From NCBI GenBank assembly GCA_037349105.1, contig JAYJMM010000099.1:744001-808000 (forward strand): a stretch of 64,000 bases of DNA, in the 5' to 3' direction. The stretch comes from Limnomonas spitsbergensis (Eukaryota; Chlorophyta; Chlorophyceae; Chlamydomonadales). How positions within the stretch are numbered: position 1 is the first letter of the stretch; every line of letters begins with the position of its first letter. The notes under the pieces were generated by a model, which saw only the letters and a list, made by a program, of their open reading frames with translations, did no database searches and was not told the origin of the DNA. The position numbers and the translations under genes are program-made. Of the stretch, positions 4,742-54,983 are shown in pieces.

Positions 4742-4743
4742 TT

Positions 4744-4833: not shown

Positions 4834-5302
4834 AACCGACAGCAACCAACGCGTTGTCAGCCAGTCATCGCTGGCCAACGCTCGTCACCACGACCTCGTA
4901 TGAATACGAACATCAACATCGCTGGTGTGTTTAGCTACTGTTAGGTATCACATCATATCGAGTGGAACAACGAGAGGAAACCGTGAGCCAGAGAGTGAAC
5001 AGCGATGACTGCCAGGATGCGACGAATGTGAAGTCGAAACGTCGGGATGCGACGAATGTGAAGTCGAATCGTCGTCGTCATCAGGCGTTGCAGCTCCCGT
5101 CAAATTTGAATCAGTTTGATATCTCCCGCCACGCGAGGCGCATAAATACCAGCTATTCATCGCAGAGGACCAAGACGTGCTAATTAAGCGCAACGCGTAG
5201 TTCCCCACTGGGCCAGTCTACCCCCCGCCTGCTTATCCGCTCAGTTCTCTGTATAGGCCTCCTTCACTCCTCTAGCCTCCCGCTCGGTAGCCCCGTCCTC
5301 CA

Positions 5303-8074: not shown

Positions 8075-8232
8075 TTTAGCTGTCCCTTATTTTCCTGCCT
8101 GCGCATACGTGTCAATTTCCTGTCAATTTACCAAACCTCATTATTTGCCTCCTTATTCACCCTGCCTTATTTATCTGTGATTTACCTACTTATTCACCAT
8201 GCCCCTTGATTTACCTGTCCATTCATGCTCAG

Positions 8233-23598: not shown

Positions 23599-23847
23599 CG
23601 TAGGTTTGTGGGGGGTCGTGGCGTCTGCAGACAATGAAGTGACCGTCCGCAAGTAAGTTTTAACAGGTGTTGGTGGTTGGTCGGTATCACTGAGTTACGC
23701 AGCTAAAAGCCAGCTGTTATTCAGCTACAATTTAGGTAGATTACAACATGTGCAGTAGTACAATTCCATAAGTGAGTTATGATTGTCGAACTGTATACTG
23801 GTATATTTTAGCGCAACTCAGCATTCATTTAGCTACATCCCATCGCA

Positions 23848-24066
23848 GGGTAACGGCCATGACGGCAGCCAGCATGCAGGTTCTGAATGTCGATCTGATC
23901 CCCTCACACTTATTGCATCACCCTTGTGGCATCACCCTTGTCTCCTCTTCCTTGTTGCTTGCACAGGGTGACGACCATGACGGCAGCCAGCGGGAAGGCG
24001 CTGAACGTCAAGTCTGTCCTGAGTGCAGCGCTCAACCCTTGTATCACCATTGCGACACTCATCAAG
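23848..24066 (+). repeat. Duplicated acceptor/exon start of the first placed kinase-gene exon
   Basis: The segment GCAGGGTAACGGCCATGACG, running on into GGCAGCCAGC, at about 23846-23880 is a decayed copy of GGTGACGACCATGACGGCAG at 23967-23986. Each copy has its own pyrimidine stretch and AG. It belongs to the class of splice-junction copies seen throughout this gene. Confidence 0.6.
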
Positions 24067-26125
24067 TAGGGAACATGGGAATCAATGAAGGGGTGCCTGA
24101 GGAAAGCAATGAGGAGGGGCTGCGAAAATCAATAAGGTGCAGACTTGAGAAATCAATTGATTGAGCCAGTCCTTGGTGGTGCTCCTGGAAATGCATGGCG
24201 TGGTGGCTGAGGAAATCAAGGAGGTGGTGGCTGGGGAAATGAATTATTTGCAGATTGGAGGAATCAATTGATCGAGCCCGTCCTTGGTGGTGCTCGTGAA
24301 AATGAATGGCGTGGTGGCTGAGGAAATCAATGGGGTGGTGGCTGCGGAAATCAATGAGGTGCAGAACAAGGAGATTATTGAGTTGCAGACCGAGGACAGC
24401 AATTGCTTGAACCTAGTTTTTGTAGGAATCGGAAGGTTTCACCCTGTTGTCCTTATCGCTTCCACTTTTCACACTCCACACCTCGCACTTCCAGCCCTCG
24501 AACCCTTTCACCTTCCACCCTTTCATCCCTCACTGTCCTGCTAAATGTACACTCAGCCCCCCTCCCCCCCCCCTCTGCACCCGTATTGGACGTGTCCTCC
24601 TTCTGGCAAGCACCCCTCTTGATACTTATGTATTCACTCTTGTACACTCTTGTCCACCCTTGCAGACAGGACCCCTTCAACTGGACTTCCTTAAACGACA
24701 CCTTTTACCGCGTGGCCTACGACGTGTTTCAGCAGTCAGAGGCAATCTTCAACGTGCAGCTTGTTCCGAACGGCATCGTTATGAGCGTCATACCCATAGC
24801 AGGTGGGTGCATTGTCAATATGTGCTTGTTTGTTGAAATCTGTGAGAAGTTGATGGATTGTGAATTTGTGATCCTCTCTTGCTTCCTGTATCAAGCTTGT
24901 GGAGTGATCGTTTCTTAATTCCTATAACAAGTCTGTGAACTGGAATTTGTGATCATCTATTGATGCCTGAAATAAGTCTGTGAAAGTTGAATTTATGATC
25001 ATCTATTGATTCCTGTAACTACTGTTACAAGATTGTGGATTTTGAATTTCGGACCGCCTCTTGATTCCTGTGACAAGTTTGTGGATTTTGAATTTCGGAC
25101 CGCCTCTTGATTCCTGTGACAAGATTGTGGATTTTGAATTTCGGACCGCCTCTTGATTCCTGTGACAAGTTTGTGGATTTTGAATTTGTGTTTTCTCGTG
25201 ATTCCTTTAACAGTTTGTAGATTGTCAATGTGTGCTTGTTTGTTGATACCCGTGAGAAGTGTGAATTTTGAATTTGTGATACGGGAGTCTCTTGATCTTT
25301 TTTTGACCGTTGGTTGATTTCCATGTCATGATATCAAATTGGTGGGGTTTCATCATCTATTGAGACCACACACCCTCTCAGCGTCTGTCGAAGCTGTAGA
25401 GGGGGGGTGGATGGTTATCATTATTTCCAATGTGCAGCTGGTCCCAACGCCCTGGTGAAGAGCCTCGTACCCATATCCAGTCCATGCATTGTTTGATTGT
25501 CAGCTAGTAGCTGTAACACGTTTTTGTATGATGTGATCGTTGTTTGATTCCGATATCATTGTATCAGGTTTGTGGGTTTTGATCATCTATTGAGATCCCA
25601 CACCCTCGCAGCTCCCGTCGCAGCTGTGCATCAGCTGTGCAGTGGGTGGATGGATATAATAATTCCCAATGAACAGCTGGTCCCCAATGCCACTATGATG
25701 CATGAGCCTCATACCTAAAGCAGTTCTTAGCGTTTGTTTTTGTTTGCAGGGGGGTATCCAGGTTACCTCCATTATGGCGCCCTGTTCATACTGATAGCAC
25801 CCAAATAAATAAAAGATCACGGCTAGCTGCTGTTTCAGGAGTGTGTTTGGTGTGTCAAGGAAGACAGCCGCAGTTTCAGATATGTGGGTTGCAGTATGTG
25901 GATTGCCTGCAACTCACCCACTGGGGTTGCATGCGCTCTCTGATGAAGCTTACTGGTGGGCCCAAGAACCCGGGGGGTATGCGGGACCTTGTACCATAAA
26001 TTTGCTCTTCCTTCCCTCATAGCTTATGTTGTTTGGGGTTGAGGGATCCCTGAATTTACTGATGATTGATTGTCGACGCCAGTTTACATTCAGAAATTAA
26101 GAGTTTTTGTCGACAGTGTGCACTG

Positions 26126-26175
<50 letters not shown>

Positions 26176-29100
26176 ATTTGAGAGCCCGCGCCTTCGATGC
26201 CCAAGGGAAGGCAAATCAAATGTACGATACTGTCCATCGCCTCATTGTTTGCTGTAAATTTGTGTGTGCGCACATTCTGCGATGAGGGGTTTCATCAAGT
26301 CGGTTTACAACGCTTCCCTAGAGTGCGATGGCGCGGTCTTGCTGGACCTGCTTAAACGCTCGGGTTCTGAGTCTGTGTTTGTGCACACTCTGAGGGGTTT
26401 CATTGAGTCGGTCTCGAATGCCTCCTCAGGCATCAAGTGGGTCTTTAATGCCTCTCTAGACTTCAAAGAAACGATCTCGCTGGATTCGCTTAACAGCTCA
26501 GTGGTGTGTGTGCGTGTTTGCAAATTCCTAATTCCGAATGCCTCCCCGGGCTTCAAAGGCGCGGGCTCTCTGGATCTGCTTAACGGTTCAGTATTTTGTG
26601 AGCTGAACGGTTGTAGCAAGCCTGCTTCTAATACCTTCCCAGGCTTTGAAAGCGCGGTCTCTCTGGACCTGCTCAACGGCTGAGTTTGTGTGTGTGTGTG
26701 TTCAAATTCTGTGCTGAAGGGTTGCAACGACCCTGTTTCTGATGCATTTTCAGGTTTTGAAGGAGTGGTCTCGCTGGATCTGCTGACCAAGCTGAAGTGG
26801 CGGCCCAGTATCCTCGCCACTATCCAGGCAGACTCAATCCTCATGCAGGGGCCGACCATGCTCCAAATAGTGAGTGTGTCAAAATTCATCTGAGTGTGCT
26901 CGAGTTACAATTCAGCCACACTTCTGCTATACTTCAGCTACAACTATGCTTTTAGTCAGTCACAATTACAGCTGCGGTCCAGCTTTAATTCAGATACCGT
27001 CCAGCTATAATTCAGATACGTCACGGCCTGTGTTGCCATGGAGGACCTGGTGCAGCTGGCCCTGCTGCTTGAGCCACCCGATGGTAGCCGGACGAGGTCC
27101 GTTCTCATTCAGCCCAGTGGTGGCTGCTGGCAGAGCTTTCCGCATGTATTCCTGTGTGCAGGATGGCAAACATGAAAATGAAAGGGATACCCGCACCAGT
27201 AGAGGGACGGCGAACTTGCTCCCTGATCTGATCCCCTCTCTCCTCTCCTCCTGCTATCATGTTGTCAAGGGTGCTTATGCCCTGATTGTGCAAATGACAT
27301 TAACAACATTAATTTGAGGACCAGTAGAGCAAATGCATCAACTAGCTCCCTCATCTGACCCCCCCTCCCCCTTCTCCTCCCCCTGCTCCGCTGCGAAGGG
27401 TGTTTATGGTCTGGTTGGGCGGATCCCCGTGTTCATCGACGGTGTGGACGTCAATGAGACATTTGGGTTCCAGAGCATGCTGACAGGTCCCCCCACATGG
27501 GGGCTGTACCGGAATGGCACGTACAACAACGGGACATTTGACAGTGAGTCAGCAGGGGGGAGGGAGGGGTGCCGCCTTTTGTTTTAAATGCCCTGGAGAG
27601 CATTCTGACAGGTCCTCCCACATGGGGGTTGTATCAGAATTGAACATATGACAACTGGACATTTGACAGTGAGTCAGCAGCGGGGCAGCAGTGATGTTTT
27701 TGAAAAAATATATTGTCTGACGCAACGAAACTCTGCTATCTGTGATTTGTCACTTCTGGTGTCTTTGCCTAAGTTAACAGGGTTTGCATTAAAATGCTGC
27801 TGATTTACACAAATCTCAAGTCTAGGGGGCTAGACAAGGGGGGATTTGGGTGGGCTGCGATGTCTGTCTTTCAAACAATCTTGTAAATATGCAGTTTTGG
27901 TCCACGGACAATTTGAACCCTAAACCTTTTAAACCCTACACTAATGACTACATTCGGCAGGCCCATGCAAAGTCATTATTCTGCGGATTAAGACCAAACC
28001 TTGACCGGCCGAAGGCCATAGGCCTGCGCAGCAGGGCTTGTTGCGCCCGTCCCCCGTGGATAGAGGTGTAGCAAAGGGCCTGTCACTTACAGGTCGGACG
28101 AGTCCCTCGACACCCGCCGTCGACCCTTGGGATGGGGTCTTTCCCCGAAAAAAGTTACACTGGCGTCCAGGACTGAAGTTTTTATTACGGAAGGAAAATT
28201 TGTTTTCTTTCCCTGCCAAAATTGTAGGGTGCTAAGGCTCCACCCCAACCGAAAACCCTTGTTTGGGCGGACTCATCCGACCCCGAAAGTGACAGGCCCC
28301 CTGGTGCGTAGCTAATCTTCAGCTAAATTGTAGCATTAGCGCCCTGTATTTAACAGAGGCGTGACCGTGTCACTCACAATCTCATGTCATTTATTTATGT
28401 CCTGCCTCTCTTCTAAGCCAAAGCTTGCTCCCTCACTGTACGGCCGCAATCGTCATTGTACCGCCAACATCAACAATGTATTACTGCCGCCAGCATCACT
28501 GTACCGCCGCACCTCCACTGTACTGCAGGGGATCTCTACGCGCCGGATAAAGGCAATTGTGGAAAGAGCTTATGCTACCGGAATGCAACACGGTCCAAGG
28601 TAGGGATCTGGATCTGGAGGGCCGTTTAACTGTGGTATATCCGGGGACGCGATCCAAGGTACAGATCTATATCTGGAGGGCCTGAGCTAGGATTTTCCCA
28701 ATCTCATTTAGGGTTCAGGGTTTCCTCCACCTTAAACCTTTAATCCTAAGCACTAAACCCTAAGTGATTCACCCTTACCCCTCCTCCTGAGCTCATTGTG
28801 ACCTGATCTAGAGGGCTGTGTGCCTTGTGATCATTCCTACCAAGGCACCGAATGGGAGACCACATTTCATCGCATTCATTCGCGCACAGCCTGCTGAGTG
28901 CGTCAGCAGTTGCATGTAGGCAGGCAACACACAGAAGGGAAGGAAAGCGCGCCCCACAGGGCGTAAGTGTTAAGGAAATAGTGCGTCATGGGCCGTGGCC
29001 GCGCCTGCGCCGTTACCGTTTACAGCACACAGCATGTGTCCCTCTCTCTCAAAGCGCTCCTCTTTGAGATGAATTTGCGACTTTCCTTCCTTCCTCCCCA

Positions 29101-32100
29101 TCCTCTGACCTAAAGTTTTCAATACTGAATTTCCCCCTGCCTCCCCATTTGTCCTTTCTGCTCCAGTTCTGGGGCCTTGCTGGTGCTGTTGTCGGCTGGG
29201 AGAAGGCGAAGGAGCTAGCCGGGCTGTATGACCTCTGCAGCCAATACGGTGAGAGAGGGGTGGGCTGGGGTCAGGGGCGTGAGGCACCAAAGCAGATAAT
29301 TCAAAATCTTGGAAAGTTTTTTAAATCTTTGCTTCACAGCCAAATAAAACAGAAATATTGCAGGTGCAAAGGCAGTACGGTGAGGGCTGGGCGGGCAGGG
29401 GGGTGAGGCGGTACGGTCGAGGTGGGCGGGGCATGTGTGTGTGTGGCAGTACTGCCAGGTTGGTGGAGAGGGGGGGGCACTACAGGAAACAGACGAGAAT
29501 GATACAGACTTCCTGGATATCCCCATTGCCGGATGCAGGGTGACATCCACCCTAAATACCACTTATTCCTGTCGTCACACTATCACCCCCCTCGTCGCCA
29601 CTCTTTCCGCCTGTGGTCACACAATTGACCCACTCATCGTCACTCTTTCTGCTTCTGGTCCCACAGACTTCATCATGACCTACACGGACCAGAACGGCGT
29701 CCCGGACGTTCCGATTGCCGGGTGTGGTGACGAGCGGAATATCCCAACAAGCCTCGTTTCATCCCGGGGCGGCGTTATCTACAACGGACGATCGCCCCAA
29801 TGACGCTGGCGGAGTACAAACACAGGTGTGGGTCAGACAAACACTCTTTATCTAGGTTTCAGCTGCACTTCAGCTACATCCCGGGACGATGTAATCTACA
29901 ATGGTACAATCACCCTGATGACGCAAGTGGAGTTCAAAAAAAGTGGTTCAGCTGTGCTTCAGCTACTTCCCTGGTTGGACATGTTCTAGGAGGGCATGAT
30001 CGCACTGGTTGATCATCCCCAGCCATGCCTGATGAGTGCCAGTTAAGGTCAAGGGGTGCCTGGGGGCAGGGTGAGTGCTGTTCGTTCCAGGGTGCTTCAG
30101 ACCTTCTGCTACAATACAGCTATATTACAGCCTATGGCTGGAGAGGCCTGGTTCAGCAAATCCTGCTGCTTGGGCTGCCTGCCATAGGCCTGTCCCCATC
30201 GTCCCTGTGGTGGCTGCCCGGCAGCCTGCTGAAGAGGGTCTGATGCCTGGTGGAATGTACACTGCGGAAGAGGGGGCAGAGGAGGCGGGAGATAAGGAGG
30301 CACATCACATTATGGGGAAGCAGCCGGCACAGGAGGGGGTAGTTAAGGAGGCACTTGAGGAATCAGACATAAGTGCCGCTGGCACACGAGGGGCACATGA
30401 GGCGGGAGATGAGGCCTTACATGGGGATGTAGACAGAGGTGCTGCTGGCGATGTGGGGACAGATGAGGGGGCTCATATGGGGGCGGACAAGGGTGCAGCT
30501 GGCAGATGCGAATGCATGTGTGAGGGCAACACTTCAGTCATCTGGGGTGGTGATGCCCTAACACACAGGAACTGATGTCTGCGTTGCCTCCCCCCTGTCA
30601 GTGTTCCTGCGGGGATCCGGTCAAGGTGGATATCTTCGCCTTGACATAACATGCAAATATCTGACACATATCAACTGCCATCTGCCCCCCCCCCTATATA
30701 TCCGCAGGGATCCGGTCAAGGTGGACATCTTTGCCTTGACATAACATGCAAATATCTGACATATCAACTGCCATCTGCCCCCCCCTATATATCCGCAGGG
30801 ATCCGGTCAAGGTGGACATCTTTGCCTTGACATAACATGCAAATATCTGACATATCAACTGCTATCTGCCCCCCCCCTCTCTCTTTCCCCGCAGGGATCC
30901 GGTCAAGGTGGACATCTTTGCCTTGACATAACATGCAAATATCTGACATATCAACTGCTATCTGCCCCCCCCCCCCTATATATCCGCAGGGATCCGGTCA
31001 AGGTGGACATCTTTGCCTTGACATAACATGCAAATATCTGACACATATCAACTGCTATCTGCCCCCCCCCCTATATATCCGCAGGGATCCGGTCAAGGTG
31101 GACATCTTTGCCCTGCATTCAAATATCTGACATATCAACTGCTATCTGCCCCCCCCCTCTCTCTTTCCCCGCAGGGATCCGGTCAAGGTGGACATCTTTG
31201 CCCTGCATTCAAATATCTGACATATCAACTGCTATTTGCCCCCCCCCCCTTACTTTCCCCGCAGGGATCCGGTCAAGGTGGATATCTTCGCCCTGAACAA
31301 TCAGTGGACGTTGTGGGTGGTGGACTCGCGGGGATGGGTGCCAAGCTGGAGGAGCCCACTGATTGCGGTGGTGGTCATCGCATCCCTCATTTTCACATTC
31401 ATGGTATGAAGGGGGACGAGAGGGGGGGAGAGAGGTAGAAGGTGTGAGAGGAGGAGGAGGGGAAGGAGGGAGAGGGGGAGGGGATGGGGTGCCAAGCTTA
31501 AAGAGCCCGCTCATTGCAGTGCTTGTCATCGCCTCCCTTATTTCCACATTAATGGTATTGGGGGGCGGAAGGGTAGGGGGAGGGGTGTGAGAGGTGGAGG
31601 GGATTGAGTGTACAGGTGTGAGAGGAGGAAGTGGATGGGTGCACAGCTGGAACAGACCGCTCATGACTGTGGTGGTCATTGCCTCCCTTATTTCCACATT
31701 TGTGGTATGTGGGGGGAGAGAGGAGGAAGGGAATGGGTGCACAGCTGGAACAGACCGCTCATGACTGTGGTGGTCATTGCCTCCCTTATTTCCACATTTG
31801 TGGTATGTGGGGGGAGAGAGGAGGAAGGGAATGGGTGCACAGCTGGAACAGACCGCTCATGACTGTGGTGGTCATTGCCTCCCTTATTTCCACATTTGTG
31901 GTATGTGGGGGGAGAGAGGAGGAAGGGAATGGGTGCACAGCTGGAACAGACCGCTCATGACTGTGGTGGTCATTGCCTCCCTTATTTCCACATTTGTGCT
32001 ATGTGGGGGGAGAGAGGAGGAAGGGAATGGGTGCACAGCTGGAACAGACCGCTCATGACTGTGGTGGTCATTGCCTCCCTTATTTCCACATTTGTGCTAT

Positions 32101-38100: not shown

Positions 38101-41100
38101 CTCTCTCTCTGTCGTAACTCCCTCATCCCCCACACTCCCCAGTCTCTCCCTCCTGAACCCTCTCCCATATATCTTCCCCATCCTCTCCCTTACCCTCTCT
38201 TTGCCCTTTCCCTTTATTTAGGGCGGTGCTGGACACAGCCTCAGACATTGCCCGGGCCATGCTGCATCTCCATCGAGGCAACGTGCTCCACATGGACCTC
38301 AAGTCGCAGAATGTCATGTGAGGGTCTAGGACAGGGGTTAAGCAGTGAATCCTTAATGTCATGTGAGGGCCTAGGACAGGGGTTCAGACTACACCCTTAA
38401 TAGCATGTCAGGGTATAGGACAGGGGTTAAGCAGTGGATCCTCAATGTCATGTGAGGGTCTAGGGCTGGGGTTCATTACTGGACCCTTCACACGTCAGCA
38501 CACAGGGCTCTGTGTTTCATCTCAAATATCTTGATGTCATGTGCGTGTGGGCAGGGGGCAGGCGCACATACTTTTGCACATGCAGATGAGTCGTTTGCTG
38601 ACCATTGCTGAGCTGTGACCTGGACCTAGCCCTGAGACCTGTCCCTAGGACCCTGAACCCTGAAATACCCCCCTGAACCCTCACCCTATCCCTGGCCCAC
38701 CCTCCCTTTTGGCAGTCTGACAAGGATGCACTCTCAAGGTTCCCAGTACCATGAACCCTGAACCATAACCCTGGACTACACCCATAACCCTAGTTCCCTG
38801 AACCCTGAAGAAACCCTGGACCAACCCCTTGAACCCCTGAACTCTAATCCTATCCCTGACCCACCCCTCCCTCCTTTCAGGCTGACTAAGACGCACTCTC
38901 AAGGTCCCGGTGGTGGTCGTGGCTTGGTCGCCAAGGTGGCCGACTTTGGGCTCTCCGTCTCTCTGGAAGCCACCCAGTCACACATGTCCAGTCTGTTCCA
39001 GGGCACGCTGACACACATGGCGCCCGAGGTGCGCCAGATTTGAATTCAAATTGTTTGAATTCGACATTTTACTGGTATGTGCTGAGGTTGGGGCAGAAGG
39101 CTCTTCTTCTGCTAGCCATGTCTGCAGCAGGGTGCGCTCACGCACAGGGCTCCCGAGGTGCGTCATATTTGAATTTGAGTGTCTGGATTTTAAAATTGGC
39201 CGGGTATGCGCTAGGTTTGAGGGTGAGGATTCTTCTAGCTGTGTCAGCATTAGGGCACGTTAAGGGCACTTGGCCCAGGGAGTTCACGCTCCTGATGCTC
39301 AACATGAGTCTCAAATTGTTGTTTCCGCCTATTATCCACCCTACTGCGTGCTGCCTGCTCCTATCGCTCCTCAGACTTTGCTCCTCATACTTTGCTCCTC
39401 GTACTAAGCTCCTCATATTCACCTCCTCATACTTGGCTCCGGAATCGCTTGTCATACCTCAAGGGAATCAGAAGTCCATGTTTCCCCAGCAGAGGATCTC
39501 ACAGCCCCTCGTCAAGAATCTCTCAGCCCCTACCCTGGCCACCCAAGGCGGAATTTCCCCCTACGATACCCCTCCCTGCGCCTGACTGATGCTTCCCACA
39601 CTGATATATATATATGTGTTGTTCAGTTACTGAGGGATGAGCTTGTGCCCACTTATTGCAATATCTTTCCCTAGTGATATTGAGAAAGGCAGGAACCCCT
39701 CAACCACACTTCATCACGGATCACCAACTGGTGCCACCCCCATGGCCACCCTAGGCCTCATTGCCCACCCATTGAACGCGTCATGGCCCGGCGGCCCGCC
39801 CCCCTGAACCCTTTCACGACAGTTCATCATAGAGGCTGTTGCCCTGCCTGATTCACATTCCATCAGCAGACTTGTGGATATCAAACTCCCTTGACCCTCT
39901 ACCCTCGTGTCTTATCATGGAATGACCTGCCTTTCCAGAATGTACTATCTACTATGATCTGATCTTTCTACTACGATAATCTGATTATGTACTATCTTCC
40001 TGATTCATATCTTTCTACTATGAGGCAGGCATGTGACTGTAAAACGTGTGTTTCACTTCAAAACCGTCTTCCCCACGCCTAACCCGTTCCTCCTGCCCCC
40101 TCCCCATGCACCCCTCTGCCTCTCAGGTGATCATGATGGGTACAGCGAGCAAGGCGGCCGATGTCTACGCATTCGGCATCACGGTGAGAGGCAGTGGGGC
40201 AGGCTGCTACAGATGTTGAACTGCTGACTAGACGGCTGAACTTTACACCCTATACCCCGCCCTCGGATGTGTGAACTGCTGACTGGACGGCTGAACCCTA
40301 CACCCACCGCCATCCCCAAAACCCCACCCATCCCATGTGGCAGCTACTTGCTAGACAGCTTCTCTTCTCCACCATCCGGAGACCGCACCTAGGTCAACAG
40401 CACCTTAACCCCATAAGCCTAATCCCTCCCCAGATGTGTGAACTGCTGACTGGCCAGCCCCCCTTGACCCCCCCCAGCATTGTGTCTGTTTTGCACCAAG
40501 TCCTCTTTGGTAAGCAGTCTTTGGTAAGCAGTCTTTGGGAAGCATCTGTGGGAAGCATCTGTGGGAAACGGCCACCCCTGGGTGGATTGGGAGCCTTGAC
40601 CGGCCGGTGGCTGAAGCATCAGGCCTTGCAGCACCAGCCCCTGGAGGTCGTGCGCCCCTGGAGGTCGTGCGCCAGCCCAGTTGCCTACCAGCGCCTGGCC
40701 GAGGAATGTTGGCAGGAGAATGTGGAGAGCAGGTGAGAGGAATTTTGAGAGGTAGCACTGTTCATTCAGGTCTGTCAGCTACTATTTAGCCACATCACCA
40801 GCAGGGGGATGTGGAGAGCGGGTGAGAGGTGGCGCTGTGGTTTTAAGTGTTGGGTTAAGGGTAAAGTGGAGGCTAGGAGAAATGCAGAACTGTTCATTTC
40901 AGGTGATTCAGCTACAAATCAGCTACAAATCAGCTACAAATCAGCTACACCTCCAGCTGGGAAGCCGGTGACCTCCTGCTTCCCTTCAGCCCCGCAGCCT
41001 GACAGCTCCTGGCTAAGGGATGCTGGCAATCGAGAGTGTGGAGGTCAGGTAAGGGGTAGCAATATGCCCATATGAGGGCGTTTCAGCTACAATTCAGCTA

Positions 41101-44100
41101 CATCAAGATGTTTGTTATGCATCAGCTGCATCAATGTTTCTGCTCCATCAGGAGGGGGCAGAAGGCTGCTGGCAGGAGCATGTGGACGTGAGGCAGGAAG
41201 CTACACCCTCCATTTGAGGGTGGTAAAATTTGGAATGGAAATGAAATGGTACAAGAAGCCCAGTTGAACGCCCCTAGTACCCTGAACCCGGAATCCTTAA
41301 TCCCCGTCAAACCCTTGTTGCCCGCCAGCTCACACCCTTAACCCTGAGCCCCCGCAGAAACCCTAGTTGCCTGCCTGCTCACACCTTCACCTTTACTCCT
41401 CTTGCCCACCTGATCATACCCGTACCCCTGAACCCCCTAGTACCCTGAACCCCCTACTAGTACCCTGAACCCCTACTAGTACCCTGAACCCCCTAGTACC
41501 CTGAACCCCCTAGTACCCTGAACCCCCTAGTACCCTGAACCCCCTACTAGTACCCTGAGCCCCCTAGTACCCTGAACCCCCTACTAGTACCCTGAACCCC
41601 CTAGTACCCTGAACCCCCTAGTACCCTGAACCCCCTACTAGTACCCTGAACCCCTACTAGTACCCTGAACCCCGTAGTACCCTGAACCCCCTAGTACCCT
41701 GAACCCCGTAGTACCCTGAACCCCCTAGTACCCTGAAGTCCTGAACCCCGTAGTACCCTGAACCCCGTAGTACCCTGAACCCCCTAGTACCCTGAACCCC
41801 GTAGTACCCTGAACCCCCTAGTACCCTGAAGTCCTGAACCCCGTAGTACCCTGAGCCCCCTAGCACCCTGAGCCCCCTAGCACCCTGAGCCCCCTAGCAC
41901 CCTGAGCCCCCTAGCACCCTGAGCCCCCTAGCACCCTGAACCCTGTAGTACCCTGAGCCCCCTAGCACCCTGATCCCCCTAGCACCCTGATCCCCCTAGC
42001 ACCCTGAGCCCCCTAGCACCCTGAGCCCCCTAGCACCCTGAGCCCCCTAGCACCCTGAGCCCCCTAGCACCCTGATCCCCCTAGCACCCTGAGCCCCCTA
42101 GCACCCGTATCCCTGAATCCTCAGCCCCTCTTTCCTGCTCCCTGCTCGAAGGCCAACGTTTGAGACGGTGCTGAAGCGACTCATCGCTATGCGCAAGGAG
42201 CTGCTGGGCGACACGCCCACACTGGACACACACAAGCTGTCAGCCAAGGAGTCCCTGGGCTACAAGAAAGTGCCCGGCCAGCCAGTGGGCCTGCCTTTCC
42301 TCGCAGAGGTATGGGATGCGAAACAAATGGGGGAAACTGTCCAGCCCGCCTGTGGGCCTGCCTTCACTCGCAGAGGTATGGAACGAAATAATGTCAGGTA
42401 GTGGGAGAAAAATGTCCAGCTCGCCACTGGGTCTCCCCTTTCCTCGGACAGATACAAAATGAAAAAATAAAGAAAAGTGTCGAGACAAACAGTGTGCCGG
42501 TCTGACCTTGAAAGAGGCACGGAATGCGCAACAAAAATGAAAGATTATGTATCCAGCCAAACTGAGGGCCTGCCTGAGCTCTCAGTTGGTACGGAATGCG
42601 AAATATGGGGTTTGAATTAGTTTCGAGCCATTCACTGAGCCTGCCGTCACTTGCATACCGGTAGATTACCACTGCAAAAGTTTAACACCCTCCCGGTTTC
42701 TCAATCCTCGCCCTGTCCTGGCGGCTGACCAGTATTTGCCCTTTCATGGCTGCTGCTCAATTCTCGCCCTTTCAACCCCCCTTCCGGTTGATTAGGTGTC
42801 GCATGAACAGGAGGCCAACAGCCAGACGCCCCTCCCAGTCATTGTGGAGACAAGCGGCCCCAATGGATCCATACCTGATTCAAACAGGTGGGCGGAGAAG
42901 TGTGGACTGAGATGTGTGGACTGGGACATATATGACAAGAGGGGTATGGAATGAAAGTGTGGATCATGTCCTTACTGCCGTGCTCTGGTGTTGAACATGC
43001 AGCCGCTCCGGCACCTGACGCACACCTCTTTTGTCCGCCTCATCTCAGCCCTTACCCCCAAAGACCCCCCCCCCCAAACGATACTGCCCTTCCTCCTGCT
43101 GACCTGGCCATCCTTGAGTTGACCATGGAAGTGCTTTGGAGCCATGCGAGCAGGTCCTTCTGCATCAGACTCCTGCGCACAACTCCGAACTATAAAAACG
43201 TCACCAGGGAAAAGTGTTTTCCTCCATGTGACCTGAATGTACTCTGGGGTGAATGCAGCGGCTCCGGAGTCGTACCATGGCACAATGGTACACGCACCTC
43301 CTGGTTCAGACCGAGCCAAGGCCTGAACCCTGAGTGATGAGCTCGATACATCATCACCCAACATCCCTCGTGCAACTGACTTTGACTTGCTCTAGATGGA
43401 ATGTGGGGAAGCACACACACCTCCTTGGTCAGCCTGGGCCAAAGCCCCAAGCCGAATATTGTCCACTCACATCATCATCCCTCGGGCAACTGACTTTGAT
43501 ATGTCTTGTTGTTGATTGCAGCCGCTCAGGAGTTATGCGAGCACCTCCTTTATCAGCCTCAGCCCAAGCTAGGAGGTCAGGCTGAGTGGGATGAGGGAGA
43601 GGGTGGGCTAGGTGTGATGAGGGGAAGGGTGGGCTAGGTGTGATGGATGGAAGGGTGAGTTAGATGTGATGAGGGAAAGGGTGGGCTAGGTGTGATGATG
43701 GGAAGGGTGGGCTAGGTGTGATGAGTGAAAGGGTGGGCTAGGTGTGATGAGGGGAAGGGTGGGCTAGGTGTGATGATGGGAAAGGTGGACTAGGTGTGCT
43801 GATGTGAAGGGTGGGCTAGGTGTGATGAGGGGAAGGGTGGGTTGGGTGTGATGAGGGGAAGGGTGGGCTAGGTGTGATGATGGGAAAGGTGGACTAGGTG
43901 TGCTGATGTGAAGGGTGGGCTAGGTGTGATGAGGGGAAGGGTGGGTTGGGTGTGATGAGGGGAAGGGTGGGTTAGGTGTGATGATGGGAAGGGTGGGTTG
44001 GGTGTGATGAGGGGAAGGGTGGGCTAGGTGTGATGAGGGAAAGGGTTGGCTAGGTGTGACGAGGGGAAGGGTGGGCTAGGTGTGATGAGGGGAAGGCCTG

Positions 44101-46327
44101 GGGCTCTCGACCCTGGAGATGAGCATAGCCACTAGGCACCCCTGCCAGCAGCAAAATCGAAACCTGAACCTATCCCCAAGCTATGACATGGCCAGGACTC
44201 TTCCAAGGCATGCCCGTTTGACGTGACGCTCACGTTTGCGCATTGACAACTGTAATCTAACTCTGTATTGGCGGTGATGGACCAAAATCAGGAAGAAAAC
44301 CAAACCCCAGGCCATTATGTGACCTTGGGGGTGTTGCATTCCCCTCTCCCTGTGTGGTGATGCACCCCCCTTTCCCTGTGTGGTGATGCACCCCCCTCTC
44401 CCTGCGTGGTGATGCACCCCCCTCTCCCTGTGTGGTGATGCATTCCCCTCTCCCTGTGTGGTGATGCACCCCCCTTTCCCTGTGTGGTGATGCACCCCCC
44501 TCTCCCTGCGTGGTGATGCACCCCCCTCTCCCTGTGTGGTGATGCACCCCCCTCTCCCTGTGTAGTGATGCACCCCCCTCTCCCTGCGTGGTGATGCACC
44601 CCCCCTCCCTGCGTGGTGATGCACCTCCCTCTCCCTGCGTGGTGATGCACCCCCCTCTCCCTGCGTGGTGATGCACCCCCCCCTCCCTGTGTGGTGATGC
44701 ACCCCCCTCTCCCTGTGTGGTGATGCACCCCCCTCTCCCTGTGTGGTGATGCACCCCCCTCTACCTGTGTGGTGATGCATCCCCCTCTCCCTGCGTGGTG
44801 ATGCTCCTCCCTCTCCGTGTGGGGTGATGCACCCCCCCTCCCTGTGTGGTGATGCACCCCCCTCTCCCTGTGTGGTGATGCACCCCCCTCTCCCTGTGTG
44901 TCGCAGATCTATTAAGAGCATGGGGTCCATGGAGGGAATCATCATTGGATCCACCCAAGCAGAGATTGAGGAGAGTGACGTTGGCGTGGATCTGCTGGGC
45001 ATGCCGCTGGAGAAGGTCCTGGAAGCCAACAGGTAAAAGCTCCGGAACCTGGTCGTCCACACAGTGCATTTGTAAATCGTAATTGCTCGTACCTGTCGTT
45101 TGTTTTGGAGGGTTGCGGTGGGATTTTATTTGAAGGGAAGCGCAGCCCATCGCCTGCCTCGGGAAGCTGCTGAGAAGCTGATGTGGCTGATTGTGTTGAT
45201 GTTGGAAGCTAATGAAAAGGTGCTATGTGTCGGATTGAGCTGTTGCTGGTAGCTGATGAAAAGATGATGTGGATGATTGATCTGAGGTTGGAAGCTGCTG
45301 AGAAGGTGCTGTATCCTCGATCTTTGGAAGATCCTGAGGTGGTGCTCTGGAAAGCCAGGTTTTAGCTGCAGCATAGATGAGAAGCTCCGAAATCAAATAG
45401 TGTTGCAAGTGTGACCTGGTGTGACCAATTTTGAGTAATTTGCGCTGAACCCTGAAGGCATGGGTCCTAAAACCTGATCCCAATCGTGGCAGGGAAACTA
45501 TAAGCTTGCTAACCCTTTTGACTCGTGTTGCATCACACACACTTCAACCTCAGCCATGGGGACAGGTCTGCTGACCAAAGGAGAGGCGGCTGAAGCACGC
45601 TCTTTGGCTTTGTTAAATTAAACGCTGGATTTGGGTTTGGCCCTGGCCCCGGAGAAGTGTGTTGATGTGTCCCTGTTTGCTTCCTCAGCGGGGACGGGAC
45701 CTCTGGTGTTTATTTTCTCGTGAGACTCAGCTACATGTCAGCCACACTCTGGACGCTGGCCGAGGCCCTATTTGTGGCCAGCCTTGCTGCTTTGGCTACC
45801 AGTTGCAGGCCGGTCCACCTTTGGTCTCCATGGGGCCTCTGGCGGCCGCTGGGCGGCCTGCCGAAGTTGGACGGATGGCCGAAAAAATAAGCACTGCCTC
45901 TGGCCTGCAGTGGATGATCCGGACAGGCCCTAGACCTTATATTCTAGCTGGACGGGAAGTATTACTGACCGTTTTCGCGTTGAGGGCAAAGCGCCTCTAG
46001 CCGGCATGGTATGGTATGAAGCGGTATGGCCCTAGAATATAAATGCTGGCCAGGCGGGTTCATCCAGCTGACCCTGAATTGACGTCTCTCTTTTCGATTC
46101 CGCAACCAATGCGGGGCCTCTAGCCGGCAGATCATGAACTGATTTAGCCCTAGAGCCTGACGACCAGGGGAGAGGGGAGATATTTGTCTGGCCTTGTATT
46201 GACGTGTCCCCCGTTTTGTTTCTGTAGCGAGGGTGAAGCCTCTGGCCGTCAGAGTGAGGATCAACCTGGGCAGGACGTTGCGGAAGAGCCCAGGCGATCG
46301 GCAGCCCGAGGCATGAGCATCGGCTAG
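23977..46327 (+). CDS. Receptor-like protein kinase: CHASE-like sensor, one TM helix, TKL kinase
   Basis: Exons with mutually compatible phases: 23977-24065, 24666-24802, 26754-26869, 27399-27543, 28529-28599, 29167-29248, 29667-29825, 31265-31403, 32419-32581, 33372-33425, 33780-33922, 34165-34266, 35169-35242, 36648-36753, 37188-37279, 38222-38317, 38881-39028, 40127-40183, 40434-40509, 40681-40732, 42152-42308, 42796-42887, 44907-45032, 46228-46327 (TAG stop). The product is about 858 residues from the ATG at 23977. Residues 1-267 are a CHASE-like ectodomain, about 298-317 a membrane helix, then a coiled coil, and about 410-720 a Ser/Thr/Tyr kinase of TKL type (GVGSFGKVYRG, VAVKT, HMDLKSQN, ADFGLS, THMAPE, RPTF). 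A short acidic tail follows. The role is presumably to sense an external ligand and phosphorylate intracellular targets; the ligand is unknown. The first placed exon starts at a CACAG acceptor (23966), so an upstream exon with a signal or first TM segment is probably missing. Exon 7 carries a one-base apparent deletion at 29787/29788. Two acceptors end in AAG (27398, 42151). Exon 10 and the start are the least certain parts. Confidence 0.8.
24905..25320. repeat. 48-bp intronic minisatellite
   Basis: About seven imperfect copies. Three near-identical ones contain GTGGATTTTGAATTTCGGAC and CGCCTCTTGATTCCTGTGAC (25033, 25081, 25127). It lies in the long intron between exons 2 and 3 of the kinase gene. 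Confidence 0.85.
25421..25724 (+). repeat. Two decayed copies of the 3' part of kinase-gene exon 2
   Basis: Segments 25421-25482 and 25660-25724 resemble the end of exon 2 (24740-24802). They keep words such as GTGCAGCTGGTCCC and GAGCCTCGTACCCATA, but the frames are broken. They lie in the intron after exon 2 and are not expected to code. Confidence 0.65.
26129..26173. repeat. (TA)n microsatellite
   Basis: About 22 perfect TA dinucleotides in the intron before kinase-gene exon 3. Confidence 0.98.
26290..26790 (+). repeat. Acceptor-junction repeats before kinase-gene exon 3
   Basis: Four decayed copies of the intron end plus exon start, roughly 100 bp apart. They are recognised by GCGGTCTTGCTGGACCTGCT at 26332, ACGATCTCGCTGGATTCGCT near 26471, GGGCTCTCTGGATCTGCTTA near 26563 and GCGGTCTCTCTGGACCTGCT near 26653. 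The functional copy is GTGGTCTCGCTGGATCTGCT at 26764-26783. Several copies keep a usable AG. Confidence 0.8.
26890..27140. repeat. Dispersed 'TTCAGCTACA' repeat, decayed copy
   Basis: Alternating TTACAATTCAG, ACTTCAGCTACAA and CAGCTATAATTCAG words lead into a GC-rich block ending near GGTGGCTGCTGGCAG. The same two-part organisation recurs in many introns of this window. Confidence 0.6.
27594..27690 (+). repeat. Copy of the donor junction of kinase-gene exon 4
   Basis: The exon end at about 27474-27560 (CTGACAGGTCCCCCCACATG through ACAGTGAGTCAGCAG) is repeated at 27603-27682 with the GTGAGTCAGCAG donor intact. The exon part of the copy has a shifted frame. Confidence 0.85.
28076..28299. mobile_element. 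Short inverted-repeat element (MITE-like)
   Basis: It begins GGGCCTGTCACTTACAGGTC and ends with the inverse complement of GGGCCTGTCACTTTCGGGGT. The match extends about 31 bp (through GGACGAGTCC / GGATGAGTCC) with a few mismatches. Total length is about 224 bp and there is no coding capacity. I see no clear target-site duplication. It lies in the intron between exons 4 and 5 of the kinase gene. Confidence 0.6.
28600..28685 (+). repeat. Copy of the donor junction of kinase-gene exon 5
   Basis: GGTCCAAGGTAGGGATCTGG at the exon 5 end (28592) is echoed by GATCCAAGGTACAGATCTAT at about 28650, each followed by ATCTGGAGGGCC. The copy keeps a GT donor. Confidence 0.7.
29340..29430 (+). repeat. Copies of the donor junction of kinase-gene exon 6
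   Basis: The exon end AGCCAATACGGTGAGAGAGG (29239-29258) is echoed by AGGCAGTACGGTGAGGGCTG near 29371 and GAGGCGGTACGGTCGAGG near 29406. A GGCAGTACTGCC echo follows. Confidence 0.6.
29500..29950 (+). repeat. Copies of parts of kinase-gene exon 7
   Basis: CCCCATTGCCGGATGCAGGG near 29521 echoes the middle of exon 7 (TTCCGATTGCCGGGTGTGGT, 29710). The exon end (29762-29825) is repeated at 29877-29942, where ATCTACAATGGTACAATCAC is in an open frame. The exonic copy at 29777-29796 lacks one base of that stretch, which is how the apparent frameshift in exon 7 was found. Confidence 0.7.
30085..30245. repeat. Dispersed 'TTCAGCTACA' repeat copy
   Basis: The word TACAATACAGCTATATTACA is followed by a GC-rich block (CCTGCTGCTTGGGCTGCCTG and GGTGGCTGCCCGGCAGCCTG). 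Same family as the copies at 32655 and 45715. Confidence 0.6.
30598..31275 (+). repeat. Eight-copy acceptor-junction array before kinase-gene exon 8
   Basis: Unit of about 93-97 bp: a C-rich pyrimidine tract, CCGCAG, then the exon start GGATCCGGTCAAGGTGGACA (running on into TCTTTGCC), then ATAACATGCAAATATCTGAC. Exon-start copies lie near 30613, 30706, 30797, 30894, 30988, 31084, 31174 and 31265; only the last continues into the full exon. Seven of the eight keep a canonical acceptor, so decoy 3' splice sites outnumber the real one. The unit is close to 95 bp with no fixed multiple of three. Confidence 0.93.
31487..32175 (+). repeat. 98-bp tandem array copying the membrane-helix exon end and its donor
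   Basis: After one diverged copy (31499-31570) come five to six near-identical 98-bp units. Each contains CCGCTCATGACTGTGGTGGT, CATTGCCTCCCTTATTTCCA and TTTGTGGTATGTGGGGGGAG, so each holds the exon 8 3' half plus a GTATGTGG donor. Every unit could still encode a short hydrophobic helix and offers a 5' splice site. Confidence 0.93.
32180..32440 (+). repeat. Three-copy acceptor-junction repeat before kinase-gene exon 9
   Basis: Copies start at 32216, 32318 and 32419 (spacing 102 and 101 bp). Each is TTGAATTCAAATT, then CACAG/CGCAG, then ATCATGCTGGTCATGGCATC. Only the third leads into the full coiled-coil exon. Confidence 0.9.
32655..32815. repeat. Dispersed 'TTCAGCTACA' repeat copy
   Basis: CACTCAGCTACATGCCAGCT leads into GTGGCCAGCCATGCTGGTTT and GCCGGTCCAGGGCTGGTCCC. 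It is closely similar to 45725-45880, which marks the two as one repeat family. Confidence 0.7.
33420..33640 (+). repeat. Donor-junction repeats after kinase-gene exon 10
   Basis: The donor region GGGTAAGGGATCTGCTTAGG (33424) is echoed by GGGCAAAATATCTGCTTAGG near 33485 and twice more as GAGGAATCTGC(G/TTAG) near 33545 and 33600. The later copies have lost the GT. Confidence 0.65.
34255..34475 (+). repeat. Donor-junction repeats after kinase-gene exon 12
   Basis: The exon end CCAAACATTGTTCAGGTAAA (34251) recurs as CCAAACATTGTCCAGGTAAG at about 34318 and as the weaker CCCAACGTCCAAGTAAACAG at 34391. Each is followed by GCAGCAAG/TATAATCAA and telomere-like CCCTGAA filler. Confidence 0.75.
34290..34990. 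repeat. Degenerate CCCTAAA/CCCTGAA intron filler
   Basis: The intron between exons 12 and 13 is largely irregular AACCCTGAA, AACCCTAAA and AACCTTGAA words. They resemble plant/algal telomere repeats but are never in a perfect long run. The same filler appears near 28700, 35700-35930, 38630-38860, 41270-41450 and 55920-56170. Confidence 0.7.
35061..35087. repeat. (CA)n microsatellite
   Basis: Thirteen CA dinucleotides in the pyrimidine-rich intron end before kinase-gene exon 13. Confidence 0.97.
35222..35660 (+). repeat. 33-bp donor-junction array at kinase-gene exon 13 (about 13 copies)
   Basis: The last codons of exon 13 plus its donor (CTAGGATCCCTGGCACAGTG, then AGTCCCCTGAACC) are repeated about 13 times head to tail. 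Each copy contains CACAGTGAGT, an intact 5' splice site. Because 33 is a multiple of three, the array is open in two frames and on both strands. Use of a downstream donor would extend the protein by multiples of 11 residues. Confidence 0.95.
36040..36650 (+). repeat. Acceptor-junction repeats before kinase-gene exon 14
   Basis: About seven copies of a 75-100-bp unit: a C-rich pyrimidine tract, then GATGTTCCAGAATGTCC, then AACCATTGTTTCCTCCCTG and GTCTGACTGAC. Junction copies lie near 36116, 36217, 36291, 36376, 36467, 36551 and 36639. The last is the true acceptor (CCAG/AATGTCCCACG at 36647/36648). Confidence 0.9.
36745..36905 (+). repeat. Donor-junction repeats after kinase-gene exon 14
   Basis: The exon end and donor (CTTCTCTTATGAGGTGAGGG) is followed by at least four variants of ATCTCTTAATGAGGTGAGGG at 30-35-bp spacing. 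Most keep a GAGGTGAGGG donor. Confidence 0.85.
37010..37200 (+). repeat. Acceptor-junction repeats before kinase-gene exon 15
   Basis: Three copies of TTTGCAG/TCTGCAG followed by GTGCGTCTGGTCCTGGTGTT or its variants, at 37015, 37131 and 37181. The first copy even keeps TTCTGCAACGTAAG, a mini-exon with its own donor. The third is the functional exon. Confidence 0.88.
37482..38094. repeat. (ACTGA)n pentanucleotide microsatellite, about 122 copies
   Basis: 613 bp of essentially perfect ACTGA repeats in the intron between the kinase hinge exon and the catalytic-loop exon. Reading frames through it on the minus strand (repeating SSVQF) are artefacts. The purity suggests recent expansion. Confidence 0.99.
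38305..38500 (+). repeat. Donor-junction repeats after the catalytic-loop exon
   Basis: AATGTCATGTGAGGGTCTAG at the exon 16 end (38310) recurs near 38356, 38400 (AGCATGTCAGGG) and 38444. Each is followed by GACAGGGGTT(A/C)AG and a CCTTAAT spacer. Confidence 0.88.
38690..38900 (+). repeat. Acceptor-junction copy before kinase-gene exon 17
   Basis: CCCTCCCTTTTGGCAGTCTGACAAGGATGC at 38699, followed by ACTCTCAAGG, parallels the true intron end and exon start (TTTCAGGCTGACTAAGACGC, then ACTCTCAAGG, at 38875-38904). About 180 bp of CCCTGAACC filler separates them. Confidence 0.8.
39015..39220 (+). repeat. Donor-junction copy after kinase-gene exon 17
   Basis: The exon end GCGCCCGAGGTGCGCCAGAT, then TTGAATTCAAATT, is repeated as GCTCCCGAGGTGCGTCATAT, then TTGAATTTGAG, about 125 bp downstream. 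Both keep CCGAGGTGCG. Confidence 0.75.
40205..40450 (+). repeat. Acceptor-junction copies before kinase-gene exon 19
   Basis: GTTGAACTGCTGACTAGACG (40215) and GTGTGAACTGCTGACTGGAC (40269) copy the exon start ATGTGTGAACTGCTGACTGG (40434). A weaker third copy is at about 40336. Confidence 0.75.
40495..40572 (+). repeat. Donor-junction repeats after kinase-gene exon 19
   Basis: CTCTTTGGTAAGCAGTCTTT gives way to a second GGTAAGCAGTC and then to GGGAAGCATCTGT twice. Period 13-15 bp; two copies keep a GTAAGC donor. Confidence 0.85.
40720..41180 (+). repeat. Donor-junction copies after kinase-gene exon 20, with dispersed repeats
   Basis: GAATGTGGAGAGCAGGTGAG (40718) recurs as GGATGTGGAGAGCGGGTGAG (40808), and more distantly near 41035 (GAGTGTGGAGGTCAGGTAAG) and 41175 (GCATGTGGACGTGAGGCA). 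Between the copies are TCAGCTACAAATCAGCTACA tracts of the dispersed family. Confidence 0.75.
41400..42115. repeat. 17-20-bp minisatellite ending at the acceptor of exon 21
   Basis: Some 40 units of ACCCTGAACCCCCTAGT or ACCCTGAGCCCCCTAGC, with CTACTAGT insert variants. The array ends about 36 bp before the CGAAG acceptor of kinase-gene exon 21. Confidence 0.95.
42270..42640 (+). repeat. Donor-junction repeats after kinase-gene exon 21
   Basis: The exon end GGCCTGCCTTTCCTCGCAGA plus donor GGTATGGGATGCGAAA (42288) recurs at about 42354 (GCCTGCCTTCACTCGCAGAG, then GTATGGAACGAAA), and more weakly near 42429, 42500 and 42568. Unit about 70 bp. The second copy has both a potential acceptor (CGCAG) and donor. 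Confidence 0.85.
42990..43600. repeat. Imperfect long repeats in the intron after exon 22
   Basis: Three loosely similar blocks each begin near CAGCCGCTCCGGCACC / CAGCGGCTCCGGAGTC / CAGCCGCTCAGGAGTT (43000, 43257, 43520) and include ACGCACCTC / GAGCACCTC words. No coding frame persists. Confidence 0.55.
43580..44095. repeat. 26-bp intronic minisatellite
   Basis: About 20 units of GGGTGGGCTAGGTGTGATGA followed by GGGGAA, in the intron before kinase-gene exon 23. Confidence 0.95.
44340..44907 (+). repeat. 26-bp array supplying the acceptor of kinase-gene exon 23 (about 21 copies)
   Basis: Units of CCCCCCTCTCCCTGTGTGGT followed by GATGCA run right up to the exon. The last unit reads CTCTCCCTGTGTGTCGCAG, so the final copy itself has become the pyrimidine tract and AG of the 3' splice site at 44906/44907. 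Confidence 0.93.
45650..46250 (+). repeat. Acceptor-junction copies before the last kinase-gene exon
   Basis: TTGATGTGTCCCTGTTTGCT, then TCCTCAGCGGGGACGGGACC (45662), and TTGACGTCTCTCTTTTCGAT, then TCCGCAA...GGGGCCTCTAGCC (46078), parallel the functional junction TTGACGTGTCCCCCGTTTTG, then TTTCTGTAGCGAGGGTGAAG (46199). The first copy retains a good acceptor. Confidence 0.75.
45715..45890. repeat. Dispersed 'TTCAGCTACA' repeat copy
   Basis: GACTCAGCTACATGTCAGCC leads to GTGGCCAGCCTTGCTGCTTT, GCAGGCCGGTCCACCTTTGG and GGGCGGCCTGCCGAAG. Highly similar to 32665-32805. Confidence 0.75.
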
Positions 46328-51910: not shown

Positions 51911-51925
51911 ATGCTGTCTTGCAGC

Positions 51926-54900: not shown

Positions 54901-54983
54901 GCCCGCCGTTCCTTCGCAATTTCCTCCCGGTTCCCTGTCCGGTTTCGGCCCCGGGCCCTCAGGATTGCAGTGGACCGTGCCAG
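51926..54983 (+). other. Polyglutamine exon
   Basis: A 3058-bp open exon with dozens of Q runs of 3-9 residues. They are coded mainly by CAG with interspersed CAA, and by many CAGCAGATG (QQM) units near 53010-53100 and 54590-54850. It ends VPG at donor CCAG/GTGAGG (54983/54984). The antisense frames rich in alanine or leucine across the same DNA are shadows of the CAG repeats. Confidence 0.85.

What the first reader, a model, noticed from the sequence alone, without database searches (positions are those of the whole stretch)
23846..46250. Splice junctions are tandemly copied into introns throughout the kinase gene
About 20 of the 24 exons have at least one copied boundary next to them. Each copy spans the exon edge plus the splice site (donor or acceptor), and copy number runs from 2 to about 22. 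Strongest cases: exon 8 acceptor x8 (30598-31275), exon 8 end/donor x6 (31487-32175), exon 9 acceptor x3, exon 13 donor x13 (33-bp units), exon 14 acceptor x7 and donor x5, exon 15 acceptor x3, exon 16 donor x4, exon 21 donor x5, and the exon 23 pyrimidine tract/acceptor x21. Introns seem to grow by repeated duplication of their own ends. Many copies keep working GT or AG, so real sites compete with decoys. I know of tandem duplication as one proposed route of intron gain. A gene in which nearly every junction is a minisatellite seed is, to my knowledge, not a described pattern.
Basis: seen in the sequence. Interest (0 to 1): 0.92.

Follow-up and report, generated by a model that had tools for sequence, protein, structure and literature searches.

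The report
Exon-edge copies filling algal introns
In a green alga (likely the snow alga Limnomonas spitsbergensis), the ends of predicted exons together with their splice sites have been copied, sometimes many times over, into the neighbouring introns, in this gene and in other sampled genes; this likely lengthens introns, and the cell's splicing machinery would have to ignore the copies.

Summary
In a 24-exon model of this kinase gene, 19-20 of 46 junctions (16-17 of 24 exons) have a direct copy spanning exon edge plus splice site in the adjoining intron; most have one copy, a few form long arrays. It is not special to this gene: in 139 introns of 31 sampled kinase and MCM-family genes, 37 donors, 19-20 acceptors and 50 introns show it. 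Controls: 0 of 139 on the reverse strand, 0-0.5% in length-matched introns of other genes. Copies usually keep GT (87 of 97) or AG (32 of 36). Close paralogues differ in copy number and unit.

"Junctions are seeds" is only partly supported. Raw, interiors of this gene's introns are as repeat-covered as junctions (47% against 41%). Counting first instances only, donors exceed deep intron about threefold, but not clearly for near-identical copies; acceptors do not clearly exceed it. Most likely this is local tandem duplication, tolerated because splicing would keep the exon-proximal site; no RNA was available.

The pattern is already described: amphioxus "mirages". New here, as far as my searches show, are the lineage, the scale, and an exon apparently rewritten by fusion with an intronic copy.

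The parts
23968..46327 (+). predicted 24-exon gene: sensor-like extracellular part, apparent membrane helix (exon 8), protein kinase of the PK_Tyr_Ser-Thr type
   Evidence: gene model; Pfam PF07714 E 2e-40 on the joined model; homologue P0001 63% identity over 87%, exon by exon; sensor part and membrane helix are read from sequence and homologues only
26280..26753 (+). copies of exon 3 acceptor and exon start in intron 2 (one passes the strict test, others seen by eye and diverged)
   Evidence: sequence; strict copy
27566..27690 (+). copy of exon 4 end plus donor in intron 4
   Evidence: tblastn 27566-27667 to P0001; score 31
30612..31296 (+). exon 8 acceptor array, about 95-bp unit, 7 copies plus real acceptor
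   Evidence: TRF
31492..32176 (+). exon 8 end plus donor array, 98-bp unit, 6 copies
   Evidence: TRF
32183..32493 (+). exon 9 acceptor array, about 102-bp unit, 2 copies plus real
   Evidence: TRF
34310..34335 (+). copy of exon 12 end plus donor
   Evidence: sequence; score 29
35222..35657 (+). exon 13 donor array, 33-bp unit x13.2
   Evidence: TRF; no copy at the same junction of paralogue C120, one scored copy in C36
36184..36654 (+). exon 14 acceptor array, 84-90-bp units; only about 7 exon bases shared, fails strict test
   Evidence: TRF (score -25 = not spanning)
36738..36918 (+). exon 14 donor array, 27/53-bp units, 2 strict copies
   Evidence: TRF; score 32
36983..37187 (+). copies of exon 15 acceptor and exon start
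   Evidence: tblastn 36983-37057; 1 strict copy, not spanning
38310..38473 (+). exon 16 donor array, 45-bp unit, 3 copies plus real
   Evidence: TRF
39028..39160 (+). intron 17 start with one copy of exon 17 end plus donor
   Evidence: tblastn reaches 39160; score 26
40434..40732 (+). chimeric exon 19/20: front half matches an intronic exon copy of paralogue C99b, rear part matches its genuine exon
42309..42600 (+). exon 21 donor copies, 3 strict
44330..44900 (+). 26-bp x22 pyrimidine-tract array before exon 23; unit holds no AG and no exon sequence
   Evidence: TRF; sequence
37482..38094 (+). non-junction array (CTGAA)x122 inside intron 15, for contrast
   Evidence: TRF
41426..42106 (+). non-junction 17-bp x40 array inside intron 20, for contrast
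   Evidence: TRF

Best explanation
The introns of this predicted kinase gene, and of other genes in the same algal genome, carry direct copies, some in long tandem arrays, of their own exon edges plus splice sites, of the kind called 'mirages' in amphioxus, and these likely arise by ordinary local tandem duplication that is tolerated because splicing would keep using the site next to the real exon. Shown: the copies, their direction, their confinement to the same intron, their presence in 17 of 31 sampled genes, the survival of most GT/AG pairs, and different copy numbers and units in close paralogues. Inferred: duplication by replication slippage or unequal exchange; that the first donor and the last acceptor are the ones used; that a duplication over a junction leaves the protein unchanged while one inside an exon is removed by selection, so junctions behave roughly like any other piece of intron. 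The excess of donors over acceptors would follow if an extra acceptor upstream of the real one does more harm than an extra donor downstream. The copies can probably also recombine with the gene: exon 19 here looks like a fusion of an intronic exon copy with the rear part of the true exon.
For: - Own intron, forward: donors 37 of 139, acceptors 19 of 139. Own intron, reverse strand: 0 of 139 each. Length-matched introns of other genes: 0.5% and 0%.
- Present in 5 of 7 MCM-family genes and 9 of 20 other kinase genes; each case outside the paralogue group is printed.
- Raw junction rates bracket the intron midpoint (donor 27%, acceptor 14%, midpoint 22%), as expected if junctions are not strongly privileged.
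- Change between paralogues: exon 13 donor has 13 copies here, 28-29 in C99b, none in C120, one scored in C36. Exon 8 donor has 98-bp x6 here and 110-bp x16 in C99b. Exon 16 donor has a 45-bp unit here and a differently built single copy in C36.
- Over the sample, introns with a copy are longer: median 780 against 348 bp.
- Copies keep GT 87 of 97 and AG 32 of 36, within error of a neutral expectation with one free lineage.
Against: Counting first instances only, donors are copied more often than deep intron: 34% against 12% at score >=16, 20% against 7% at >=24, gene-bootstrap p 0.001 or below. The excess is not significant at >=30 over all genes (9.4% against 5.2%, p 0.07) but is p 0.03 without the window family. 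One constrained partner makes junction duplicates detectable for longer, which may explain part of this but perhaps not all. The stretch 24-72 bases upstream of acceptors is also rich in copies (35% against 10%), which a flat process does not predict. Within this gene, introns with a copy are not longer than those without (735 against 790 bp), and a longer intron has more room for a copy, so the length link may run the other way. No RNA evidence exists here, so use of exon-proximal sites is assumed. The sample is two protein families, not a random draw.
Confidence: 0.72

Rival explanations
1. Junctions, donors above all, are preferred birth places of tandem duplications (a mutational hotspot at intron ends), so introns grow mainly from their own ends.
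For: First-instance rates at donors 34% against 12% in deep intron, at the exon edge before donors 27% against 12%, and 35% against 10% just upstream of acceptors (score >=16). In the window gene donors reach 13 of 23.
Against: In this gene the raw rate at junctions (41%) is not above interiors (47%). The donor excess shrinks for near-identical copies (score >=30: 9.4% against 5.2%, p 0.07 over all genes). The acceptor junction shows no clear excess (17% against 10% at score >=16, p 0.04; not significant at >=20). Fully intronic windows 24-72 bases past donors lose significance outside the window family (p 0.10 or more).
Confidence: 0.2
2. The copies are kept as working or regulatory decoy splice sites.
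For: GT/AG in copies is better conserved than its neighbours (0.94 and 0.93 against 0.81 and 0.80) and than interior GT/AG in repeats (0.79 and 0.76); the contrast is significant before allowing for the constrained partner.
Against: If only the copy is free to mutate, 0.88-0.89 is expected; the excess of 0.04-0.05 has a confidence interval including zero. Copy number differs widely between close paralogues.
Confidence: 0.05
3. These are newborn introns made by tandem duplication of exonic AGGT-type segments, or inserted introner elements.
For: Tandem genomic duplication is an accepted route of intron gain (PMC3443670, passages). Exon 19 is interrupted here and continuous in two paralogues.
Against: Junction windows match almost nothing in introns of other genes (0-0.5%), so there is no dispersed introner family. 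The duplicated units span existing junctions. Exon 19 fits fusion with an intronic copy better than insertion of a new intron.
Confidence: 0.05
4. Assembly artefact: noisy long reads inflated or created tandem copies.
For: The likely source assembly is from PacBio continuous long reads polished with short reads (PMC11228838, passages); exon 7 has a 1-base difference from its paralogue.
Against: Units within arrays differ by substitutions, paralogues have different units, and the same pattern recurs in unrelated genes.
Confidence: 0.03

Closest known systems
[quoted passage not shown] PMC3087553 and PMC3902484, passages read; the original Adh paper was not held
   Same: Duplicated units spanning exon edge and splice site, at both 5' and 3' boundaries, many with intact AG/GT, units of about 10 to 160 bp, copy number differing between haplotypes (there) or paralogues (here).
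   Different: Green alga instead of cephalochordate; 50 of 139 sampled introns in 17 of 31 genes, MCM-family genes included, where the passages name a handful of genes; many junctions here have only one copy. Normal splicing was reported for amphioxus and is untested here.
Intron gain by tandem genomic duplication (reviewed in PMC3443670, passages; potato case PMC4974935, search listing; Drosophila PMC2891723, passages)
   Same: Local tandem duplication involving splice-site sequence.
   Different: There an exonic segment duplicates and a new intron results; here existing junctions are copied into existing introns.
Introner elements (PMC9860276, search listing only)
   Same: Repeated sequence tied to introns.
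   Different: Introners are dispersed among genes; these copies are confined to their own intron.
Stwintrons in Hypoxylaceae (PMC8469720, passages)
   Same: Extra splice signals inside an intron.
   Different: Nested introns spliced in succession and dispersed to new gene positions; not exon-edge copies beside their own junction.

Membership tests
Mirage (tandem duplication of intron-exon boundary) | tandem direct copies spanning an exon-intron boundary | tested here: met
   37 of 139 donors and 19-20 of 139 acceptors have direct copies; 0 of 139 on the reverse strand. Long arrays at some junctions; others have a single copy that need not abut the junction
Mirage (tandem duplication of intron-exon boundary) | both 5' and 3' boundaries affected | tested here: met
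Mirage (tandem duplication of intron-exon boundary) | many copies keep AG/GT signals | tested here: met
   87 of 97 GT, 32 of 36 AG
Mirage (tandem duplication of intron-exon boundary) | length instability | tested here: inconclusive
   paralogues differ in copy number and unit; alleles or reads could not be compared
Mirage (tandem duplication of intron-exon boundary) | regular splicing undisturbed | not testable with these tools
Intron gain by tandem genomic duplication | a new intron in a formerly continuous exon, bounded by the duplicated segment | tested here: inconclusive
   only exon 19 was found interrupted relative to paralogues, and it fits fusion with an intronic copy; other introns were not dated
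Introner elements | the same element in introns of many genes | tested here: not met
   junction windows in length-matched introns of other sampled genes: 0-0.5%

The most novel reading that the evidence does not exclude
In this algal lineage exon-intron junctions, donors above all, are preferred birth sites of minisatellites: introns grow outward from their own splice sites across the whole genome, the spliceosome works amid thousands of intact decoys, and the copies recombine back into genes and rewrite exons, as in exon 19 here. Mirages would then be a general engine of intron lengthening and exon change, not a cephalochordate curiosity.
Probability: 0.2. Interest if true: 0.82.

Novelty: new member of a known kind. 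Interest (0 to 1): 0.6.

Why it matters
If the rate in my sample (introns of at least 150 bp in kinase and MCM-family genes) holds more widely, about a third of introns in this genome carry a copy of one of their own ends, mostly with intact splice dinucleotides. That would offer a natural test of how a spliceosome chooses among near-identical sites, of how introns lengthen, and of whether boundary duplications feed intron gain, a model put forward for amphioxus from a few genes. The genome paper for the likely species describes full-length transcripts and long DNA reads, so the key test may need no new sequencing.

Tried and rejected
- Raw comparison of junctions with intron interiors first suggested no junction effect at all. 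Weighting each array once and counting only first instances brought out a donor excess, so both views are reported.
- Selection on decoys: the first comparisons looked like selective retention of GT/AG. A one-lineage expectation removed the significance, so it was rejected.
- Introner family: rejected by the cross-intron control.
- I thought of Haematococcus as the organism; the genome paper I looked at (PMC7617258, passages: 151 Mb) did not match. Limnomonas spitsbergensis fits by assembly size and contig number (260,248,090 against 260,226,709 bases; 124 contigs in both). This is an inference; the small difference in bases is unexplained.
- Comparison with related algae was not possible: the genome search states that this genome has no relatives there, and the other collections hold prokaryotes, viruses, phages and plasmids.
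- I took the ORFs at 5257-8816 for Helitron-like from memory. Pfam gave no match for the three pieces scanned (5257-5781, 6011-6388, 6821-7876) and I dropped it.
- Rows dropped before counts: in genes other than the window's (where all 23 manual introns were used), introns called by fewer than 2 homologous proteins or under 150 bp; for all introns under 300 bp. Loci overlapping others or lying in the window gene and its three paralogues (L010, L012, L013, L014, L016, L017, L029, L033) and L004 and L009, which matched in one long stretch, were left out. Five loci gave no intron call (C17, C39, C14, C118b, C63) and one gave only an intron below the cut-offs (C86). The group 'other kinases' still includes C32, a more distant member of the window gene's own family.

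Full report
What was checked. The window lies on contig C99 (744001-808000) of a 260.2 Mb genome in 124 contigs. Assembly size and contig number fit the snow alga Limnomonas spitsbergensis (PMC11228838; abstract, passages and sections 19-20 read), so that is the likely source; this is an inference. That paper gives a mean of 6.7 exons per coding sequence and a mean intron of 788 bp. In the parts I saw (12 of 25 places found, two sections) it does not mention copied junctions.

The gene. I read the sequence and built a 24-exon model at 23968-46327. A database search found a C. eustigma homologue, 63% identical over 87% of the query (P0001). tblastn with it matches exons 1-9 and 11-21, exon 14 and exon 19/20 only weakly. 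Pfam finds a kinase domain (PF07714, E 2e-40). Exons 10 and 22-24 rest on splice signals and open frame only. A simple spliced aligner given six homologues called 16 of the 23 introns; 14 agreed with my manual introns, two (at exon 7 and exon 19) differed.

The copies in this gene. With a strict test (score >=16 of 40, alignment spanning the junction by 8 bases on each side) 19 of 46 junctions have a copy in their own intron: donors 13 of 23, acceptors 6 of 23. With a slightly different search the figure is 20 of 46. That is 16 or 17 of 24 exons. On dinucleotide-shuffled introns the 99th percentile is 15.5 and the maximum 19 in 184 tests, and no junction passes on the reverse strand. Most copied junctions have one strict copy: 8 of 13 donors and 5 of 7 acceptors.

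Is it this gene only? No. I used loci of other kinase genes, three close paralogues and seven MCM-family loci, and called introns by spliced alignment to homologous proteins. Of 139 introns in 31 genes, 37 donors have a copy and 19 or 20 acceptors, depending on masking (19; 20 together). Fifty introns in 17 genes have at least one. Cases outside the paralogue group are printed. Controls: own intron on the reverse strand 0 of 139; length-matched introns of other genes 0.5% for donors and 0% for acceptors. In 14 of the 31 genes no sampled junction had a copy.

Are junctions privileged? Raw, no. In this gene interiors score 47% (805 of 1706) against 41% for junctions; in the whole sample the donor is 27%, the acceptor 14% and the intron midpoint 22%. 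Raw interior rates are inflated because every copy of an array counts. Weighting each array once, interiors are 17% (this gene), 13% (paralogues), 11% (other kinases) and 11% (MCM). Counting only first instances from the exon side in 96 introns of 28 genes, windows centred at the donor junction or 8 bases before it are 34% against 12% deep in the intron at score >=16, 20% against 7% at >=24, and 9.4% against 5.2% at >=30 (bootstrap p 0.07; p 0.03 without the window family). Acceptor junctions are 17% against 10% (p 0.04) and not significant at higher cut-offs. The stretch 24-72 bases before the acceptor is 35% against 10%. A junction copy is compared with a partner that can hardly change, so such copies stay detectable longer; I judge that this explains part of the donor excess.

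Change between paralogues. Paralogue C99b (protein pieces up to 94% identical, same contig) has 28-29 copies at the exon 13 donor against 13 here, a 110-bp x16 array at the exon 8 donor against 98-bp x6, nine copies at the exon 6 donor against one, and no strict copy at the exon 16 and 21 donors against three each, though a shorter partial copy is visible at its exon 16 donor. The exon 13 donor has no copy in paralogue C120 and one scored copy in C36; C36 also has its own, differently built single copy at the exon 16 donor. So the arrays have changed since the paralogues parted, and repeated birth at the same junctions is likely; loss in some lineages cannot be excluded.

Do copies matter to splicing? 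Copies keep GT in 87 of 97 and AG in 32 of 36 cases. This is more than interior GT/AG in repeats (0.94 against 0.79, 0.93 against 0.76), but the excess over the expectation with only one free lineage is 0.04-0.05 with an interval including zero. So I see neither purging nor selective keeping. Which sites are used is untested.

Intron growth. Junction-seeded tracts cover 22% of intron bases in this gene, 19% in the paralogues and 10-11% in the others. Over the sample, introns with a copy have median length 780 bp against 348 bp without (p 8e-8); within this gene there is no such difference (735 against 790 bp). With those tracts removed the median is still 477 bp (p 0.02). So long introns also offer more room for copies or have grown by other arrays, such as (CTGAA)x122 in intron 15.

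An exon rewritten. In C99b and C120 the region of exon 19/20 is one continuous open stretch, and the C. eustigma protein reads straight through. Here its front part (40431-40490) and the stretch 40571-40656 match an intronic exon copy and the following intron of C99b, and only 40671-40732 matches the true exon. About 200 bases, including the genuine acceptor and exon front, appear to be missing. The simplest reading is a deletion that fused an intronic copy to the rear part of the exon. Together with the one-base difference in exon 7 (159 against 160 bases in C99b) this copy of the gene may be decaying; C99b has the canonical exon 19 and long arrays too.

What is known. [quoted passage not shown] PMC3902484, passages). 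I found no report in an alga or at this scale in searches; the library holds open-licence papers only.

Verdict. Real, widespread in the sample and already a known kind of structure; the lineage, the scale and the rewritten exon are new as far as my searches show. The mechanism I favour is ordinary local tandem duplication hidden by splicing; a preference for donors is possible and testable.

Noticed in passing
window 40434-40732: Exon 19/20 looks like a fusion of an intronic exon copy with the rear part of the true exon; paralogues C99b and C120 have one continuous stretch. Another diverged exon 19 copy lies at 40322-40396.
   Followed up: partly
window 29667-29825: Exon 7 is one base shorter than in paralogue C99b and the frame breaks there; a degenerate copy of the exon end lies just downstream. 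Assembly error or decay cannot be told apart.
   Followed up: partly
window 1-4742 and 9361-23595: Two large arrays of a 37-bp satellite (about 128 and 385 units); matches go on along contig C99 from at least 720090. The listed matches all lie on C99, but the list is cut and the first look passed only 5 candidates.
   Followed up: partly
window 5257-8816: Open frames between the two satellite arrays; Pfam gave no match for the three pieces scanned.
   Followed up: partly
window 37482-38094: A perfect (CTGAA)x122 microsatellite in intron 15.
   Followed up: no
G000 C75:557000-599000: Several similar MCM-like gene copies in a row, and a relative at C112:1167000-1171000; their identity was not measured.
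   Followed up: no
window 51851-55132: A 1093-residue open frame very rich in glutamine with CAG-type repeats; no Pfam match.
   Followed up: no
introns of the kinase gene, e.g. window 34270-34960 and 41426-42106: Introns are littered with CCCTGAA/CCCTAAA-like motifs resembling telomere repeats (resemblance recalled), which might help slippage; seen by eye only.
   Followed up: no
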